DNA of 7,081 nt, from NCBI GenBank assembly GCA_902531455.1, contig CACAEM010000028.1, forward strand, positions 1-7,081. The letters are read 5' to 3'. The stretch's first letter is position 1. Every line of letters starts with the position of its first letter. Positions 1 through 4,777 of the stretch are shown piece by piece. A program made the translations under genes and the position numbers. The notes beneath the pieces are model-generated. The model was given only the letters and a program-made list of their open reading frames with translations. It made no database searches and had not been told where the DNA came from. Source of the DNA: an uncultured Pelagibacteraceae bacterium. GTDB lineage: Bacteria; Pseudomonadota; Alphaproteobacteria; Pelagibacterales; Pelagibacteraceae.

Positions 1-2
1 AA

Positions 3-1235
3 GATCAACTTGCAAACGTTGTAGATGGCAAAGCTTTTTTGCTTCAGGGAGGAGATTGTGCGGAGAGTTTTGCAGAATTTAATCCAGATAATATTAGAGA
101 CTATTTTAAATTAATGTTGCAAATGTCTTTAGTTTTAACATACTCAGCATCATTACCAGTTGTGAAGTTAGGAAGAATTGCTGGCCAGTTTTCGAAGCCC
201 AGAAGTGCGCCTACTGAAAAACGTGGAGACATAGAGCTTCCAAGTTATTTGGGAGATAACATTAATGGTGTAGAATTTAATGAAACTGCTAGAGAGTACG
301 ATCCTAAAAGATTATTCAGGGCCTATTCCCAATCTGCATCTACACTTAACCTTATAAGAGCATTTTCTAATGGTGGTTTTGCCGATTTGAAAAAAGTTCA
401 CTTGTGGAATTTAGGATATATTAAATCTGCTTCACAAGCTAAAAAATTTAAAGACCTAGAAGATAAAATCGCGGACGCATTGGCATTTATGGAAGCTTGT
501 GGAATTACATCAGATTTTAACAGACGACTTTACACTGTTAATTTTTGGACATCTCATGAGGCTTTACACTTACCTTTCGAAGAAACAATGACTAGAATTG
601 ATTCAATGACTGGTGAATATCATGATACATCAGCACATTTTGTTTGGATAGGTGATAGAACAAGACAAATAGACGGTGGACATATAGAATTCTGCAGAGG
701 AATTGAAAATCCAATTGGAATTAAGTGTGGACCAACCTCCAAGCCTGATGAAATTGCTAAAATTTGTGAATTAATTAATCCTAAAAATGAAAAAGGAAAA
801 GTTACTTTAATTTCTAGATTTGGTCATGATCAAGTAGAAAAATATTTACCAAAACTTATAAGAGGAATAAAAAAAGAGGGACTAAATGTGATTTGGTCAT
901 GTGATCCAATGCACGGAAATACAATTAAATCTACTACAGGATTTAAAACAAGACCTTTTAATAATGTTTTAAATGAAGTTAAAAATGTTTTTGGTGTACA
1001 TCAAAGTGAAGGCTCTTATGCAGGAGGACTTCATATTGAAATGACTGGTCAAAATGTGACAGAATGTACAGGTGGAGCACAGAAAATATCAGACACAGAT
1101 TTATCAAGTAGATATCACACACAATGTGATCCAAGACTAAATGCCAATCAAGCCTTAGAGTTAGCTTTCTTAATATCAGACGAGATTAAAAAGAATACCT
1201 TGTATGCTAAAAATGGTATTAGAGCGGCATCTTAA
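3..1235 (+). CDS. aroG: Class II 3-deoxy-7-phosphoheptulonate (DAHP) synthase, 5'-truncated by window edge
   Basis: Catalyses the first step of the shikimate pathway, condensing phosphoenolpyruvate and erythrose 4-phosphate in the cytoplasm. The frame is open from base 3 with no start codon in view. 410 residues are visible, and class II enzymes run about 450, so roughly 40-50 N-terminal residues lie outside. Seen directly: QGGDCAES (visible residues 15-22), KPRSAPTEKRG (65-75), YSQSASTLNLIRAF (108-121), WTSHEAL (182-188), GDRTRQIDGGH (217-227), DPMHGNT (301-307), EMTGQNVTEC (346-355) and CDPRLN (375-380). The four expected metal ligands fall at C19, H304, E346 and D376. The H-to-E and E-to-D spacings of 42 and 30 equal those I recall for M. 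tuberculosis AroG (C87, H369, E411, D441). It is the class II (plant-like) type, not the E. coli AroFGH type. The next gene follows after 37 bases on the same strand, so cotranscription is likely. Family is certain; the symbol is conventional. Confidence 0.96.
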   Translation, partial: DQLANVVDGKAFLLQGGDCAESFAEFNPDNIRDYFKLMLQMSLVLTYSASLPVVKLGRIAGQFSKPRSAPTEKRGDIELPSYLGDNINGVEFNETAREYDPKRLFRAYSQSASTLNLIRAFSNGGFADLKKVHLWNLGYIKSASQAKKFKDLEDKIADALAFMEACGITSDFNRRLYTVNFWTSHEALHLPFEETMTRIDSMTGEYHDTSAHFVWIGDRTRQIDGGHIEFCRGIENPIGIKCGPTSKPDEIAKICELINPKNEKGKVTLISRFGHDQVEKYLPKLIRGIKKEGLNVIWSCDPMHGNTIKSTTGFKTRPFNNVLNEVKNVFGVHQSEGSYAGGLHIEMTGQNVTECTGGAQKISDTDLSSRYHTQCDPRLNANQALELAFLISDEIKKNTLYAKNGIRAAS

Positions 1236-1272
1236 TCATTTAATTTTTAAAATTAATAATTATATTCAAAGT

Positions 1273-1734
1273 ATGGATCCAAGCCAAAAAGTAACATTTA
1301 TTAAAGATTGGATATCGAACTATGTAAGCTCGATGCCTAAAAAAGCTGAGTCTTTGGTCATTGGAATTTCAGGCGGAATAGACTCATCAGTTTCTAGCAC
1401 TCTGAGTGCAATGACGGGACTTAAAACTATTGTTTTATCCATGCCAATAAAGCAAAAAAGTGCACAACATGATTTAAGTTTAAAACATCAAGAGTGGCTT
1501 AAACAAAATTTTGAAAATGTTGAAGGAATTACCGTCGAGTTAGACAGTCTTTTTTCTACATTTCAAAATACTTTGAAAAATTTTAATAGTTTACATGGCA
1601 TGGCAAATTCTAGAGCTAGATTAAGAATGACAACGCTTTATCAGGTTGCTGCTGCAAACAATGGAATAGTAGTTGGCACAGGAAATAAAGTTGAAGACTT
1701 TGGTGTAGGATTTTACACAAAGTATGGTGATGGT
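1273..1734 (+). pseudogene. nadE: nadE 5' fragment (NH3-dependent NAD+ synthetase, N-terminal half)
   Basis: This part encodes the PP-loop ATPase core of NAD synthetase, which adenylates nicotinic acid adenine dinucleotide and amidates it with ammonia. There is no upstream nitrilase-type glutaminase domain: the frame begins about 32 residues before SGGIDSS, as in the short ammonia-dependent class. Similarity to NadE is continuous through KYGDG and then stops abruptly. The C-terminal region, which helps form the substrate site and the dimer, is absent, and no remnant of it was found in the other frames downstream. It is marked as a fragment because the remaining piece should not fold into a working enzyme. 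Confidence 0.82.
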
Positions 1735-2088
1735 GCTGAAATAATATTCCCAGAGGCTTTAAAAAACGAAAAAGAATTTGAATTAGTAAGAAAGTCACTA
1801 GATTGTTATCTTTTAGCTAATATGACTGAATTTGGTAAATCTAAATTACTTAATTATAAACAGCTTCAAGACTTGGGATATAATATAGTCATTTATCCAG
1901 TCTCCACCCAAAGATTAGCAATGAAAAATGTGGAGGATGGTTTACGTGCCATTTTTGCTGATGGACATCAAAACAATATTATTGATAAAATGCAGACGCG
2001 GAAGAGATTGTATGATCTAGTTGAATACGAAAAATATAATGCTTTAGACGAAAAGATTTATAATTTTAATACAGATGGACATGAATAA
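1273..2088 (+). CDS. Chimeric frame: N-terminal half of ammonia-dependent NAD synthetase joined in frame to C-terminal third of 2-methylisocitrate lyase
   Basis: A 271-residue frame from ATG 1273. Residues 1-154 are NadE: P-loop SGGIDSS (33-39), ANSRARLRM (111-119), GTGNKVED (135-142) and GFYTKYGDG (146-154). NadE normally continues GVDISPIADL and ends with a TDE-rich C-terminus. Here residue 155 onward reads AEIIFPEAL, LLANMTEFGK (180-189), YPVS (208-211) and DKMQTRKRLYDLVEY (238-252), which is PrpB sequence from the FPEA motif to its normal C-terminus. The missing NadE part is roughly 115 residues, including nicotinate-adenine-dinucleotide-binding elements. The missing PrpB part is roughly 180 residues, including the KKCGH catalytic cysteine loop and the Mg-binding aspartates. 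Neither activity is expected. Total length (271) mimics a normal NadE (about 275), so length filters would not flag it. An upstream in-frame ATG at 1204 lies inside the aroG gene and adds 23 residues without family similarity, so 1273 is preferred. No Shine-Dalgarno site is obvious. The 3' end overlaps the prpC start (TAATG). It could be a true fusion or an assembly chimera. Confidence 0.85.
   Translation: MDPSQKVTFIKDWISNYVSSMPKKAESLVIGISGGIDSSVSSTLSAMTGLKTIVLSMPIKQKSAQHDLSLKHQEWLKQNFENVEGITVELDSLFSTFQNTLKNFNSLHGMANSRARLRMTTLYQVAAANNGIVVGTGNKVEDFGVGFYTKYGDGAEIIFPEALKNEKEFELVRKSLDCYLLANMTEFGKSKLLNYKQLQDLGYNIVIYPVSTQRLAMKNVEDGLRAIFADGHQNNIIDKMQTRKRLYDLVEYEKYNALDEKIYNFNTDGHE
1732..2088 (+). pseudogene. 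prpB: prpB 3' fragment (2-methylisocitrate lyase, C-terminal third)
   Basis: Methylisocitrate lyase cleaves 2-methylisocitrate to pyruvate and succinate in the methylcitrate cycle for propionate. The retained 117 residues begin at the GAE of the strand that carries the FPEA glutamate (E188 in E. coli PrpB, from memory). They continue through LLANMTEFG, YPVS and DKMQTR to the usual C-terminal tail. The TIM-barrel N-terminal part with the metal-binding aspartates, the KKCGH loop and the RTDA arginine is missing. The TAATG coupling to a methylcitrate synthase downstream is the arrangement expected of a prpBC operon, so this end of the gene appears to be in its original place. Confidence 0.82.
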
Positions 2089-3212
2089 TGAGTGACGAAA
2101 TCAAAAAAGGTTTGCTTGGTATAGTTGTTGACGAAACAGAAGTTTCCAAAGTAATGCCAGAGATTAACTCTTTAACCTATAGAGGATATGCCGCTCAAGA
2201 TTTATGTGCTAAATGTAAATTTGAAGAGGTCGCTTATCTAATCCTTAATGGCGAACTACCAACCAAAAAACAATTAAAAAAATTTGAAAAAGAAGAAAGA
2301 AAAGAGAGAAAGCTATCTAAAACTTTATTAGATGATATCAAAAAATTTCCTAAAAAAGCTCACCCTATGGATGTTGCTAGAACAGCAGTAAGTATTATGG
2401 GACTTGAAGATAAAGAAACTAAAGATAATTCTCCCAAAGCCAATATGCGAAAAGTTATGAGAATATTTGCAAAGATGCCAGTTGCCCTAGCTGCATTTTA
2501 CAGAGCAAGAAAAGGAAAGAAAATTATTCCACCCAAAATAAATTTATCTTTTTCAGAAAACTTTTTTCATATGTGTTTTGGGAAAGTTCCAAATAGAAAT
2601 ATTGTAAAAGCATTTGATGTATCTCTAATTTTATATGCAGAACATAGTTTTAATGTATCCACTTTTACTGCAAGAACTATAACTAGTAGTTTATCTGACA
2701 TCCATGGTGCTATTACTGGAGCTATTGCAAGTTTAAAAGGACCTCTTCATGGAGGAGCTAATGAAGAAGTCATGCATATGATGAATAAAATTAAAAAACC
2801 TGAGAATGCTCTTAAGTGGATAAATAAAGCTCTAGATAACAAAGATGTTGTAATGGGTTTTGGTCACAGAGTTTACAAAAGTGGAGACTCAAGAGTTCCA
2901 ACTATGAGGGAATATTTTGGTAAAGTTGCCAAAATTAAGAAAGATAAAAAATTTGAGAAAATTTACGACATAGTTGAAAAGGTAATGATAGATAGAAAAA
3001 ACATTCATCCAAATGTGGATTACCCTACTGGACCGACTTATCATTTAATGGGTTTTGATACAGATTTTTTTACACCAATTTTTGTAATTTCAAGAATTAC
3101 TGGTTGGTCAGCACATATTATAGAACAACATGCTGCTAATAAACTTATTAGACCTCTAGCAAGCTACAGAGGTAGCAAACACAGAAAAGTTCTTCAATTA
3201 AATCAAAGATAA
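2088..3212 (+). CDS. prpC: 2-methylcitrate synthase / citrate synthase family protein
   Basis: Condenses propionyl-CoA (or acetyl-CoA) with oxaloacetate to give 2-methylcitrate (or citrate). The 374-residue length and the N-terminus (KKGLLGIVVDETEVSKVMPE, then YRGY 31-34) fit the short PrpC/citrate synthase II group rather than the longer hexameric GltA. Seen motifs: FEEVAYLILNGELP (45-58), HPMDVARTAVS (92-102), AEHSFNVSTFTAR (184-196), GPLHGGANE (218-226), GFGHRVYKSGD (257-267), NVDYPTG (309-315) and GWSAHIIEQ (339-347). The catalytic triad is complete as H221, H260 and D311. The ATG shares one base with the preceding TAA (TAATG), implying translational coupling to the prpB-derived frame. 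That context and the sequence favour PrpC over a housekeeping citrate synthase, though such enzymes often accept both substrates. No prpD is present in the window. The gene is intact, and its partner upstream is broken. Confidence 0.88.
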   Translation: MSDEIKKGLLGIVVDETEVSKVMPEINSLTYRGYAAQDLCAKCKFEEVAYLILNGELPTKKQLKKFEKEERKERKLSKTLLDDIKKFPKKAHPMDVARTAVSIMGLEDKETKDNSPKANMRKVMRIFAKMPVALAAFYRARKGKKIIPPKINLSFSENFFHMCFGKVPNRNIVKAFDVSLILYAEHSFNVSTFTARTITSSLSDIHGAITGAIASLKGPLHGGANEEVMHMMNKIKKPENALKWINKALDNKDVVMGFGHRVYKSGDSRVPTMREYFGKVAKIKKDKKFEKIYDIVEKVMIDRKNIHPNVDYPTGPTYHLMGFDTDFFTPIFVISRITGWSAHIIEQHAANKLIRPLASYRGSKHRKVLQLNQR

Positions 3213-3249
3213 TTAAATCATTATATTTTATTTCATTATAAAGTTTTTA

Positions 3250-3255
3250 TATAAT
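3250..3255 (+). promoter_or_regulatory. Possible -10 box for the flavodoxin-fold gene
   Basis: A perfect TATAAT lies 9 bases before the ATG at 3265, which would give a leaderless or nearly leaderless transcript. The region 17 bases upstream (3227-3232, TTTATT) is only a weak -35 match. In sequence this A+T-rich a chance match is quite possible. The 52-base gap after prpC is nevertheless the largest on the plus strand here, and it is a sensible place for a new promoter. Confidence 0.3.
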
Positions 3256-3264
3256 ACCTTTAAA

Positions 3265-3873
3265 ATGAAAAAAATATTTATTGCTTATGGGCATCACAAT
3301 ACTTCAAATTCTTTCAACTCAGCTATAAGAGACACCTTTATTGATGAAGCTAAAAAAGTTGGACATAAAATTGATTTGATAAATTTGTTTGAAGAAAAAG
3401 AACAACTTCCTTTTTATAATCAGAACGTTAATCCACCTCCTCAGCTTGTATTAGATTATAGAAAAAGATTGGAAGATAGTGATGTAATGATGTTAATCGG
3501 TTCTTGCCACAATTTAAGACTTAATGCAATTCTAGAAAATTGGGTTGATTGGGTGTTACATCCTAAATGGTTTTTTTCATACAAATCATTAATTCCAGGT
3601 AATAAATATTTTAAAAATTATGGTTACCCAGTTCCTGGTGCAATGAAAGGTAAACTTGGTATTGTATCAATTACATATGGTGGACCAATGATTAGTTATC
3701 AAAACTTTTCAATTTTTGACAATATTCCTTTTAGAAGAATAAAAAAAATTGTTTTTAAATTGGGGGGACTTAAAACAAAATATATTAGATTCTACTCTGT
3801 ATTGCCTGATATGGATAAAAAAATTTTTGAAAAACACATGGGTAGAGTTAAAAAGTTGGCAAGGAGCTTATAG
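3265..3873 (+). CDS. Flavodoxin-fold NAD(P)H oxidoreductase (NQO1/KefF/MdaB-like)
   Basis: A 202-residue cytoplasmic protein of the Flavodoxin_2 type, expected to bind FMN or FAD and reduce quinones or other acceptors with NAD(P)H. Seen: N-terminal strand KKIFIAYGHHNTSNSFN (2-18), matching the family pattern of a hydrophobic strand followed by H and SFN for phosphate binding. Next come DVMMLIG (73-79), LENWVDWVL (90-98), which matches the family's LKxWxDRV helix, and KGKLGIVSITYGGP (128-141), which matches the second flavin-contact loop. The usual PxWW segment before the helix is replaced by GSCHNLRLNAI (79-89), so flavin binding or substrate may be unusual. The substrate cannot be named. No clear Shine-Dalgarno site precedes the ATG. 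The gene ends convergently with the haem-monooxygenase-like gene, overlapping it by 6 bases. Confidence 0.8.
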   Translation: MKKIFIAYGHHNTSNSFNSAIRDTFIDEAKKVGHKIDLINLFEEKEQLPFYNQNVNPPPQLVLDYRKRLEDSDVMMLIGSCHNLRLNAILENWVDWVLHPKWFFSYKSLIPGNKYFKNYGYPVPGAMKGKLGIVSITYGGPMISYQNFSIFDNIPFRRIKKIVFKLGGLKTKYIRFYSVLPDMDKKIFEKHMGRVKKLARSL

Positions 3874-4170
3874 AACTCTTTCAAATCCCTCAAATTCTGG
3901 TGCTCCTAAATATAGATCTTTGTGCCGACCAGCATTTTTATGAGCTAATCTAAAAGCCTCAGATTTAGTCCAATTAAAAAAATCTTCTTGTGAATTCCAT
4001 ATACTATGGGAAGCATATAAAGAAAATTCATCAGTTTTTTTTCCTTTAATTAAATGAAATTCTTTAAAACCGGGAACGCCACTTAAGTGCGTATCTCTTT
4101 CTCTCCATACTTTTTCAAATTGCTCTTCTTTACCAGGAACAATTTTAAATCTGTTCATTGCAATAAACAT
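3868..4170 (-). CDS. ABM-domain protein, probable haem-degrading monooxygenase (IsdG/HmoB-like)
   Basis: A 100-residue single-domain ferredoxin-like (antibiotic biosynthesis monooxygenase) protein, the usual size for the IsdG/IsdI/HmoA group. Seen: NRFKIVPGKEEQFEKVWRER (6-25), VPGF (32-35), YASHSIWNSQEDFFNWTKSE (52-71), AHKNAG (76-81) and a C-terminal GAPEFEGFE. The residues needed for haem ring opening in IsdG (N7, W67, H77, from memory) are matched here by N6, W67 and H77, which favours a true haem oxygenase over other ABM proteins such as quinol monooxygenases. The start at 4170 keeps the Asn at position 6; a second Met at residue 5 would leave Asn at position 2 and is rejected. It begins 3 bases after the nitroreductase stop, so it is probably cotranscribed. 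Its stop overlaps the converging gene. The physiological reductant is unknown. Confidence 0.82.
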   Translation of the reverse strand: MFIAMNRFKIVPGKEEQFEKVWRERDTHLSGVPGFKEFHLIKGKKTDEFSLYASHSIWNSQEDFFNWTKSEAFRLAHKNAGRHKDLYLGAPEFEGFERVL

Positions 4171-4173
4171 AAA

Positions 4174-4737
4174 CTATAAGTATGAGACAACTTTGCCAGG
4201 GTCTGGTCTTCTTCTTTCGTTTGGTTCCTCAACTTTATGACCAATGTAAATAAAACCTGAAATTCTATCTATATCTGGTCTTCCACCCAAATATTCTAAC
4301 ATTTTATTATTATAAGCGTACCACTCTGTTAACCATTGAGCTGCATATCCTAAAGACTGAGCGCATGACAATAAATTCATGCATACTGCTCCTGACGACA
4401 AAACCATTTCCCAATTTGGTATTTTCGGATGTTCAACAGGTGTCGATATAACTGCCATTACTACAGAAGCTCTTTGAAGCCTTTTTGATTCAATTATTAA
4501 ACTTTCGTTACTAGCCTCTGGATTTTCCCTCTTAAATTCTGTTAATATTATGCTTTCATCAATAACTTTTAATTTATCGTCTTTTATAACTTTTATTTTC
4601 CAAGGATTTAAGGCTCCGTGGTCTGGAACTCTTATTCCAGCATTAATTATTGTTAGAAGATCATCATCTTTAATTGGATGATTTCGCATTTTTTTTGCTA
4701 AAACAGATCTTCTTTTCAAATAAAAATTCTCACTCAT
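4174..4737 (-). CDS. YdjA-like nitroreductase family FMN oxidoreductase
   Basis: A 187-residue protein of the small nitroreductase group typified by E. coli YdjA (183 residues): homodimeric, FMN-binding, and using NAD(P)H, with a natural substrate that is not established. Seen: the N-terminal RRS FMN-phosphate motif (9-11), AGIRVPDHGALNPW (33-46), matching YdjA AGxRxPDHxxxxPW, IPNWEM (106-111), the SSGAVCMNL helix (114-122) and GFIYIGH near the C-terminus (161-167), followed by a PDP element (178-180). It lies 38 bases downstream of nrdB and 3 bases upstream of the haem-monooxygenase-like gene on the same strand. A purine-rich GGAAGAAAG lies upstream on the minus strand, but it is too far from the ATG (about 12 bases or more) to be a strong ribosome site. 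Confidence 0.88.
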   Translation of the reverse strand: MSENFYLKRRSVLAKKMRNHPIKDDDLLTIINAGIRVPDHGALNPWKIKVIKDDKLKVIDESIILTEFKRENPEASNESLIIESKRLQRASVVMAVISTPVEHPKIPNWEMVLSSGAVCMNLLSCAQSLGYAAQWLTEWYAYNNKMLEYLGGRPDIDRISGFIYIGHKVEEPNERRRPDPGKVVSYL

Positions 4738-4757
4738 GCTTATTCAGCTTCTTTCTT

Positions 4758-4777
4758 CCGCACGTGTGGTTTTTTTT
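4758..4777 (+). other. Near-palindrome (CCGCACGTGTGG) followed by eight T
   Basis: The 12-base element centred on CACGTG is followed directly by T8 on the plus strand, inside the 38-base nrdB-nitroreductase gap. As plus-strand RNA it could fold a 4-pair stem (one G-U) with an ACGT loop and a U tract, resembling a minimal terminator. Both flanking genes are read on the minus strand, however, so that orientation has no obvious client. On the minus strand the A run precedes the hairpin and one stem pair is lost, so it is not a terminator there. It could instead be a protein-binding palindrome or chance. Confidence 0.3.

What the first reader, a model, noticed from the sequence alone, without database searches (positions are those of the whole stretch)
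1720..1745. In-frame NadE-PrpB chimera joined exactly at a shared Gly-Ala/Asp motif
Seen: the frame reads as NadE through KYGDG (residues 150-154) and as methylisocitrate lyase from AEIIFPEAL onward, with no frameshift or stop. Known: NadE continues from GDG with GVDISP, and PrpB has GAD/GAE immediately before FPEA. Inference: the two ancestral genes carried similar DNA here (GGTGATGGTG-like versus GGTGCTGAA-like), so recombination or slippage over a few bases could join them and remove the nadE 3' part plus the prpB 5' part. The product has near-normal NadE length, so automatic annotation would probably call it an intact NAD synthetase or miss the PrpB part. I know of no described NadE-PrpB fusion.
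Basis: partly seen in the sequence, partly recalled or inferred. Interest (0 to 1): 0.85.

Follow-up and report, generated by a model that had tools for sequence, protein, structure and literature searches.

The report
Artefactual joining of two bacterial genes
A marine bacterial DNA fragment seems to carry a new hybrid of two metabolic enzymes, but in related bacteria the two genes sit several thousand bases apart on opposite strands, and the join looks like a copying artefact made in the laboratory, not a natural gene.

Summary
ORF 1273-2088 (+) reads as NadE for residues 1-154 and as the C-terminal 40% of PrpB (methylisocitrate lyase) from 155 on, in frame. It is most likely not a natural fusion gene. 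In SAR11 relatives DAHP synthase-nadE and prpB-prpC are divergent gene groups on opposite strands: 61 of 61 genomes with both pieces listed on one contig (breakpoints 6.3-10.2 kb apart, median 7.2), 8 of 8 in a set of close relatives (7.2-8.0 kb), 41 of 41 loci. None of 150 listed match rows crosses the junction. So the join needs an inversion plus loss of the DNA between, at a 4-5 base shared word (TGGTG). That is the signature published for multiple-displacement-amplification (MDA) chimeras: 337 of 475 were inverted and under 10 kb apart (PMC1855051). Of 240 proteins listed by two searches of about 5.8 billion clustered proteins, only the window's own carries both families. Both halves look conserved. 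The sequencing method and reads are unknown here, so a recent natural inversion is not excluded. Verdict: inverted in-vitro chimera, low interest.

The parts
3..1235 (+). Class II DAHP synthase gene, 5' end cut off by the window edge; left parent segment, collinear with nadE in relatives
   Evidence: PF01474 profile 48-438 of 438; TIGR01358 47-441 of 443; 93.7-96.3% aa identity to L001-L006 and L013
1273..1735 (+). 5' 63% of nadE (residues 1-154; 245 residues in the relative L103)
   Evidence: TIGR00552/PF02540; DNA matches to relatives typically end at 1733-1738
1731..1735 (+). Junction: TGGTG shared by nadE (GATGGTG|G) and prpB (GCTGGTG|C). It is 5 bases if the strain's own prpB had GCT there, 4 if GCG or GCA as in some relatives
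   Evidence: Junction sequences of relatives; random joins of a relative's nadE and another's prpB share 5 or more bases in 1.1%, 4 or more in 3.0%
1731..2088 (+). 3' 40% of prpB (117 codons after the shared Gly; 298 codons in the relative L103), without the KRCGH motif that lies at residues 121-125 of the full relative
   Evidence: TIGR02317 175-284 of 285; 97.4% aa identity to L015 and L017; full-length prpB at L103:7974-8870; motif position
2088..3212 (+). prpC (2-methylcitrate synthase/citrate synthase), intact; right parent segment, collinear with prpB in relatives
   Evidence: NF010636 604 bits, above its cut-off of 479; follows prpB in the prpB loci that reach far enough and in L103

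Best explanation
The join is an in-vitro chimera of the multiple-displacement-amplification type. A strand being copied through DAHP synthase into nadE lost its 3' end from the template inside nadE, at ...GATGGTG. That free end annealed over 4-5 bases to a nearby displaced strand of the same polarity in prpB (...GCTGGTG), and copying went on through prpB and prpC. The product joins two segments that lie about 7-8 kb apart on opposite strands in the chromosome, drops the DNA between, and by a roughly 1-in-3 chance keeps frame. The source cell most likely carried intact nadE and prpB. Shown: both parent segments, the divergent order and distance in relatives, the shared bases, and the absence of a second copy in the searches made. 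Inferred: that the DNA was amplified in this way, and that the source strain had the ordinary order.
For: (1) Inverted geometry: 61 of 61 genomes with both segments listed on one contig are divergent; 8 of 8 in the set of close relatives; 41 of 41 loci with DAHP synthase and prpB. (2) Distance: 60 of 61 under 10 kb, median 7.2 kb; 7157-8013 bases in the eight. (3) Shared TGGTG at the join, 1.1% chance at 5 or more bases, 3.0% at 4 or more. (4) PMC1855051 (abstract and passages seen): 406 of 475 MDA chimeras inverted, 337 of these under 10 kb apart; complementarity in 93.5% of inverted ones under 10 kb; about one junction per 22 kb. PMC2668756 (passages seen): one chimera per 13-27 kb in marine single-cell DNA. 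(5) Of the 120 proteins listed only the window's own has a NadE and a PrpB part; of the 120 listed for the reciprocal query none has. (6) No decay seen: dN/dS 0.023-0.054 for the nadE part and 0.012-0.039 for the prpB part, near the intact neighbours. (7) A 4-5 base word is too short for an assembler's k-mer overlap (general knowledge), so a chimeric DNA molecule is likelier than a pure assembly error.
Against: The source of the window and its amplification method are unknown (no whole genome held; source column blank). No near-identical parent strain was found: the relatives compared are about 85-91% identical in DNA, so the ordinary order in this very strain is inferred. Short shared bases and absence of decay would also fit a very recent natural rearrangement; with dS near 1 the dN/dS test cannot see recent decay. 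The frame is kept, which an artefact does only by luck (about 1 in 3).
Confidence: 0.78

Rival explanations
1. A real, very recent chromosomal inversion in one SAR11 strain, with breakpoints inside nadE and prpB, that broke both genes and left an in-frame but probably inactive NadE-PrpB protein.
For: The two genes are divergent in relatives, so one inversion between them gives exactly this join; short shared bases also occur at natural rearrangements (general knowledge); the frame is open.
Against: It would break nadE, the last step of NAD synthesis (established knowledge), in a small genome, and also prpB. The reciprocal prpB-nadE protein is not among the 120 listed of 8000 scored. No second copy of the join was seen. 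No sign of relaxed selection, though that test is weak for a recent event.
Confidence: 0.08
2. Another technical mis-join: library ligation or PCR chimera, or assembler error.
For: Single contig, single sequence; such artefacts exist in public assemblies (general knowledge), and the single-contig partial tandem PrpB proteins P0002, P0121 and P0122 may be others.
Against: Ligation chimeras would not favour inverted partners a few kb apart with shared bases; 4-5 bases are too few for a k-mer join (general knowledge); no run of N at the join.
Confidence: 0.13
3. A natural, functional NadE-PrpB fusion enzyme.
For: Open frame of 271 codons with start and stop, and an intact prpC downstream.
Against: About 37% of NadE (everything after GDG) and about 60% of PrpB, with its KRCGH motif, are missing compared with the full-length genes in L103. 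No other member among the proteins listed. Relatives keep the two genes apart.
Confidence: 0.01

Closest known systems
Inverted chimeras with intervening deletion formed in multiple displacement amplification (Lasken and Stockwell 2007, PMC1855051)
   Same: Opposite-strand segments less than 10 kb apart joined, DNA between dropped, a few complementary bases at the join.
   Different: Here the use of such amplification is inferred from the geometry, not known; the join happens to keep frame.
NH3-dependent NAD+ synthetase NadE (TIGR00552, PF02540)
   Same: Residues 1-154, 91-97% aa identical to NadE of L001-L006 and L013.
   Different: Lacks the C-terminal part from GVDISP on.
2-methylisocitrate lyase PrpB (TIGR02317)
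   Same: Residues 155-271, up to 97.4% aa identical to SAR11 PrpB.
   Different: Lacks about 181 N-terminal residues, with the KRCGH motif; scores 137.5 against a cut-off of 354.4.

Membership tests
MDA inverted chimera | Joined segments lie on opposite strands in the source genome | tested here: met
   On relatives, not on the strain itself: 61 of 61 genomes with both segments listed on one contig; 8 of 8; 41 of 41 loci
MDA inverted chimera | Segments under 10 kb apart, DNA between deleted | tested here: met
   On relatives: 60 of 61 under 10 kb, one at 10166; 7157-8013 bases in eight close relatives; no intervening DNA at the join in the window
MDA inverted chimera | Short complementarity (2-21 bases) at the join | tested here: met
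   TGGTG or GGTG, judged from relatives' prpB
MDA inverted chimera | DNA was amplified with phi29 polymerase | not testable with these tools
   Origin of the window not given; no own genome held
MDA inverted chimera | Join present in only one assembly | tested here: met
   Within the reach of the searches: only the window's own among the 120 listed of 8000 scored; 0 of 150 listed rows span it; exact 20-base junction 0 hits in viral contigs. Metagenome contigs were not searched
NadE (TIGR00552) | Match over the full domain | tested here: not met
   Only positions 4-158 of 251 matched, although the score passes the cut-off; the full relative matches 4-234
PrpB (TIGR02317) | Score above the equivalog cut-off | tested here: not met
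   137.5 against 354.4; the full relative scores 373.4

The most novel reading that the evidence does not exclude
A SAR11 strain that truly carries this inversion, having lost both NAD synthetase and methylisocitrate lyase, and that lives on imported or salvaged NAD or precursors downstream of NadE.
Probability: 0.05. Interest if true: 0.45.

Novelty: not a real feature. Interest (0 to 1): 0.1.

Why it matters
As a finding it matters mainly as a warning. An in-frame join of two metabolic genes passes an NCBI NadE cut-off and could enter databases as an intact NAD synthase or a novel fusion. Comparing strand and distance of the two parents in relatives is a quick test that exposes such inverted chimeras. 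If the inversion were real, it would mean a free-living SAR11 cell without its own NAD synthetase.

Tried and rejected
Simple deletion between adjacent nadE and prpB: rejected, because relatives have them divergent, with six genes between them in L103, the one relative read in full. A recurrent natural fusion: not supported, no second member listed and no listed match across the join. The three proteins that outscored ordinary hits in the two protein searches (P0002, P0121, P0122) looked at first like possible further fusions; on reading they are partial tandem PrpB repeats without any NadE part. Search for the exact 20-base junction in viral contigs: 0 hits. Own-genome search: not possible. 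Literature: nadE + prpB + fusion + chimeric together, 0 papers; NAD synthetase + methylisocitrate lyase + fusion, 1 paper, on propionate and E. coli, seen only in the listing. These cover only the held open-licence PMC papers, and the term sets are narrow, so they do not prove that no such fusion is in print. Searches for SAR11 single-cell chimera papers gave PMC2668756, of which passages were seen; the other listed papers were not read. Solved structures matched either half separately, apart from one match of a phosphorylmutase chain that began at residue 122; it was not pursued. Structure prediction of the chimera was not run, since it would not separate an artefact from a real join.

Limits of the counts: one search examined 197 genomes, 186 with a match; its listing was cut, so one search used the 150 listed rows from 86 genomes. 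Of these, 64 had both sides listed, 61 on one contig; the three with sides on different contigs (G159, G023, G095) were left out, and 22 genomes had only one side listed. In one search the nadE-side breakpoint was extrapolated where the match ended early (G064, G191, G051, G125), and the prpB side of G026 was not corrected (off by about 300 bases). One search used 8 of the 13 genomes; left out were G001, G007, G011 (sides on different contigs), G006 (no prpB side listed) and G012 (nadE side cut by the contig end; orientation also divergent). The 13 were chosen by me from the best rows. G002 is in both sets. Each protein search listed the best 120 of 8000 scored candidates. One search compared 14 loci that I chose, some of them overlapping pieces of one genome (L103 and L086; L017 and L092).

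Full report
What is there. The ORF at 1273-2088 (+) encodes 271 residues (an in-frame earlier start at 1204 exists). Residues 1-154 are NadE and 155-264 match PrpB, each recognised on its own when the halves are searched apart (Pfam finds only the NadE half). Upstream is a class II DAHP synthase cut by the window edge, downstream an intact prpC.

What relatives look like. A scan of genome contigs kept 80 loci; the record titles name Pelagibacteraceae, Pelagibacterales or Candidatus Pelagibacter, that is SAR11. Placing the window's genes on them shows two separate collinear groups: DAHP synthase-nadE, and prpB-prpC. In 41 of 41 of these loci that hold both DAHP synthase and prpB, the two point away from each other. 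In the relative L103 the order is nadE, DAHP synthase, an ElyC-like gene, glmS and a GlmU-like acyltransferase on the minus strand, then a phosphoglycolate-phosphatase-like gene, prpD, prpB and prpC on the plus strand (the DAHP synthase and prpC of L103 named from their likeness to the window's). NadE there is 245 residues and PrpB 298.

Counts. Of 13 genomes chosen from the best rows and searched with window 1-3212, 8 have both pieces on one contig with the nadE side complete, and in all 8 they are on opposite strands with breakpoints 7157-8013 bases apart. In 197 genomes of the family, 186 matched. Of the 150 listed rows, from 86 genomes, none crosses the junction; 64 genomes have both sides listed, 61 of them on one contig, and 61 of 61 are divergent, with breakpoint distances of 6302-10166, median 7198, 60 of them under 10 kb. 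In the rows the nadE-side matches end at 1733-1738, apart from six that end earlier (1235-1633), and the prpB-side ones start at 1725-1732, apart from three that start later (1747, 1873, 2030).

The join itself. The window reads GGTGATGGTG|CTGAAAT. NadE relatives read GATGGTGG at this place in the closest rows, several PrpB relatives GATGCTGGTGCTGA. TGGTG at 1731-1735 is shared; if the strain's own prpB had GCG or GCA there, as some relatives do, the shared word is GGTG. Random joins of a relative's nadE and another's prpB share 5 or more bases in 1.1% and 4 or more in 3.0% of 400,000 draws. Both words include a GGT glycine codon in the same phase, which is why the frame is kept.

Mechanism. 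A deletion or slippage cannot join two divergent genes; one segment must be turned round. Lasken and Stockwell (PMC1855051; abstract and passages seen) describe this kind of product of multiple displacement amplification. Of 475 chimeras 406 were inverted, 337 of these with segments under 10 kb apart, with intervening deletion; complementarity at the join was found in 93.5% of inverted ones under 10 kb, and about one junction arose per 22 kb. For marine single cells one chimera per 13-27 kb was reported (PMC2668756, passages seen). Judged on relatives, the window meets each of the structural features. That the DNA was so amplified is my inference; the tools do not tell the source.

Is the fusion seen elsewhere, or decaying? 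Among about 5.8 billion clustered proteins one search scored 8000 candidates and listed 120; of these only the window's own protein has a NadE and a PrpB part, and the next, P0002, is a tandem PrpB. A reciprocal PrpB-NadE query, which a true inversion should also create, listed 120 proteins; all 120 match both PrpB parts and none the NadE part, and the top two are tandem PrpB repeats. The exact junction is absent from viral contigs; metagenome contigs were not searched. Against relatives the nadE part has dN/dS 0.023-0.054 and the prpB part 0.012-0.039, near the DAHP synthase (0.018-0.042) and prpC (0.014-0.017) beside them. A long-standing pseudogene should show more; since dS is mostly 0.6-1.2, a recent event would not show. 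This fits an artefact, and also a very recent event.

Verdict. The chimera is truly in the sequence but most likely not in a living cell: an inverted in-vitro chimera (about 0.78), another technical mis-join (about 0.13), a recent real inversion (about 0.08), a functional fusion (about 0.01). Results against my reading: unknown library method, no near-identical parent strain (the relatives compared are about 85-91% identical in DNA), and the kept frame.

Noticed in passing
window 3213-4770: The genes between prpC and nrdB (Flavodoxin_2 family, ABM monooxygenase, nitroreductase) form a variable spot: of 53 loci with prpB, prpC and nrdB, only 2 show the flavodoxin-like gene, 5 the ABM gene and 5 the nitroreductase, which is 68-69% identical in three loci where prpC and nrdB are 97-99%.
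   Followed up: partly
proteins P0002, P0121, P0122: Three single-contig PrpB proteins, much like SAR11 PrpB, with a partial tandem repeat of the domain; in P0121 the repeated stretch looks identical and the contig is 56 kb, in P0002 and P0122 the copies differ, as if two alleles were joined. Assembly errors or real duplications.
   Followed up: partly
L103:5063-5683 (-): A 206-residue protein matching only the C-terminal acyltransferase half of GlmU, next to glmS; where the uridylyltransferase half lies was not checked.
   Followed up: no
L070:7190-7207: The prpC match is split in two pieces in different frames in this relative, perhaps a frameshift or sequencing error.
   Followed up: no
relatives: The nadE-prpB distance falls mostly in discrete classes (about 6.3, 7.0, 7.2, 7.8-8.1 kb), which suggests single-gene gains or losses between the two groups.
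   Followed up: no
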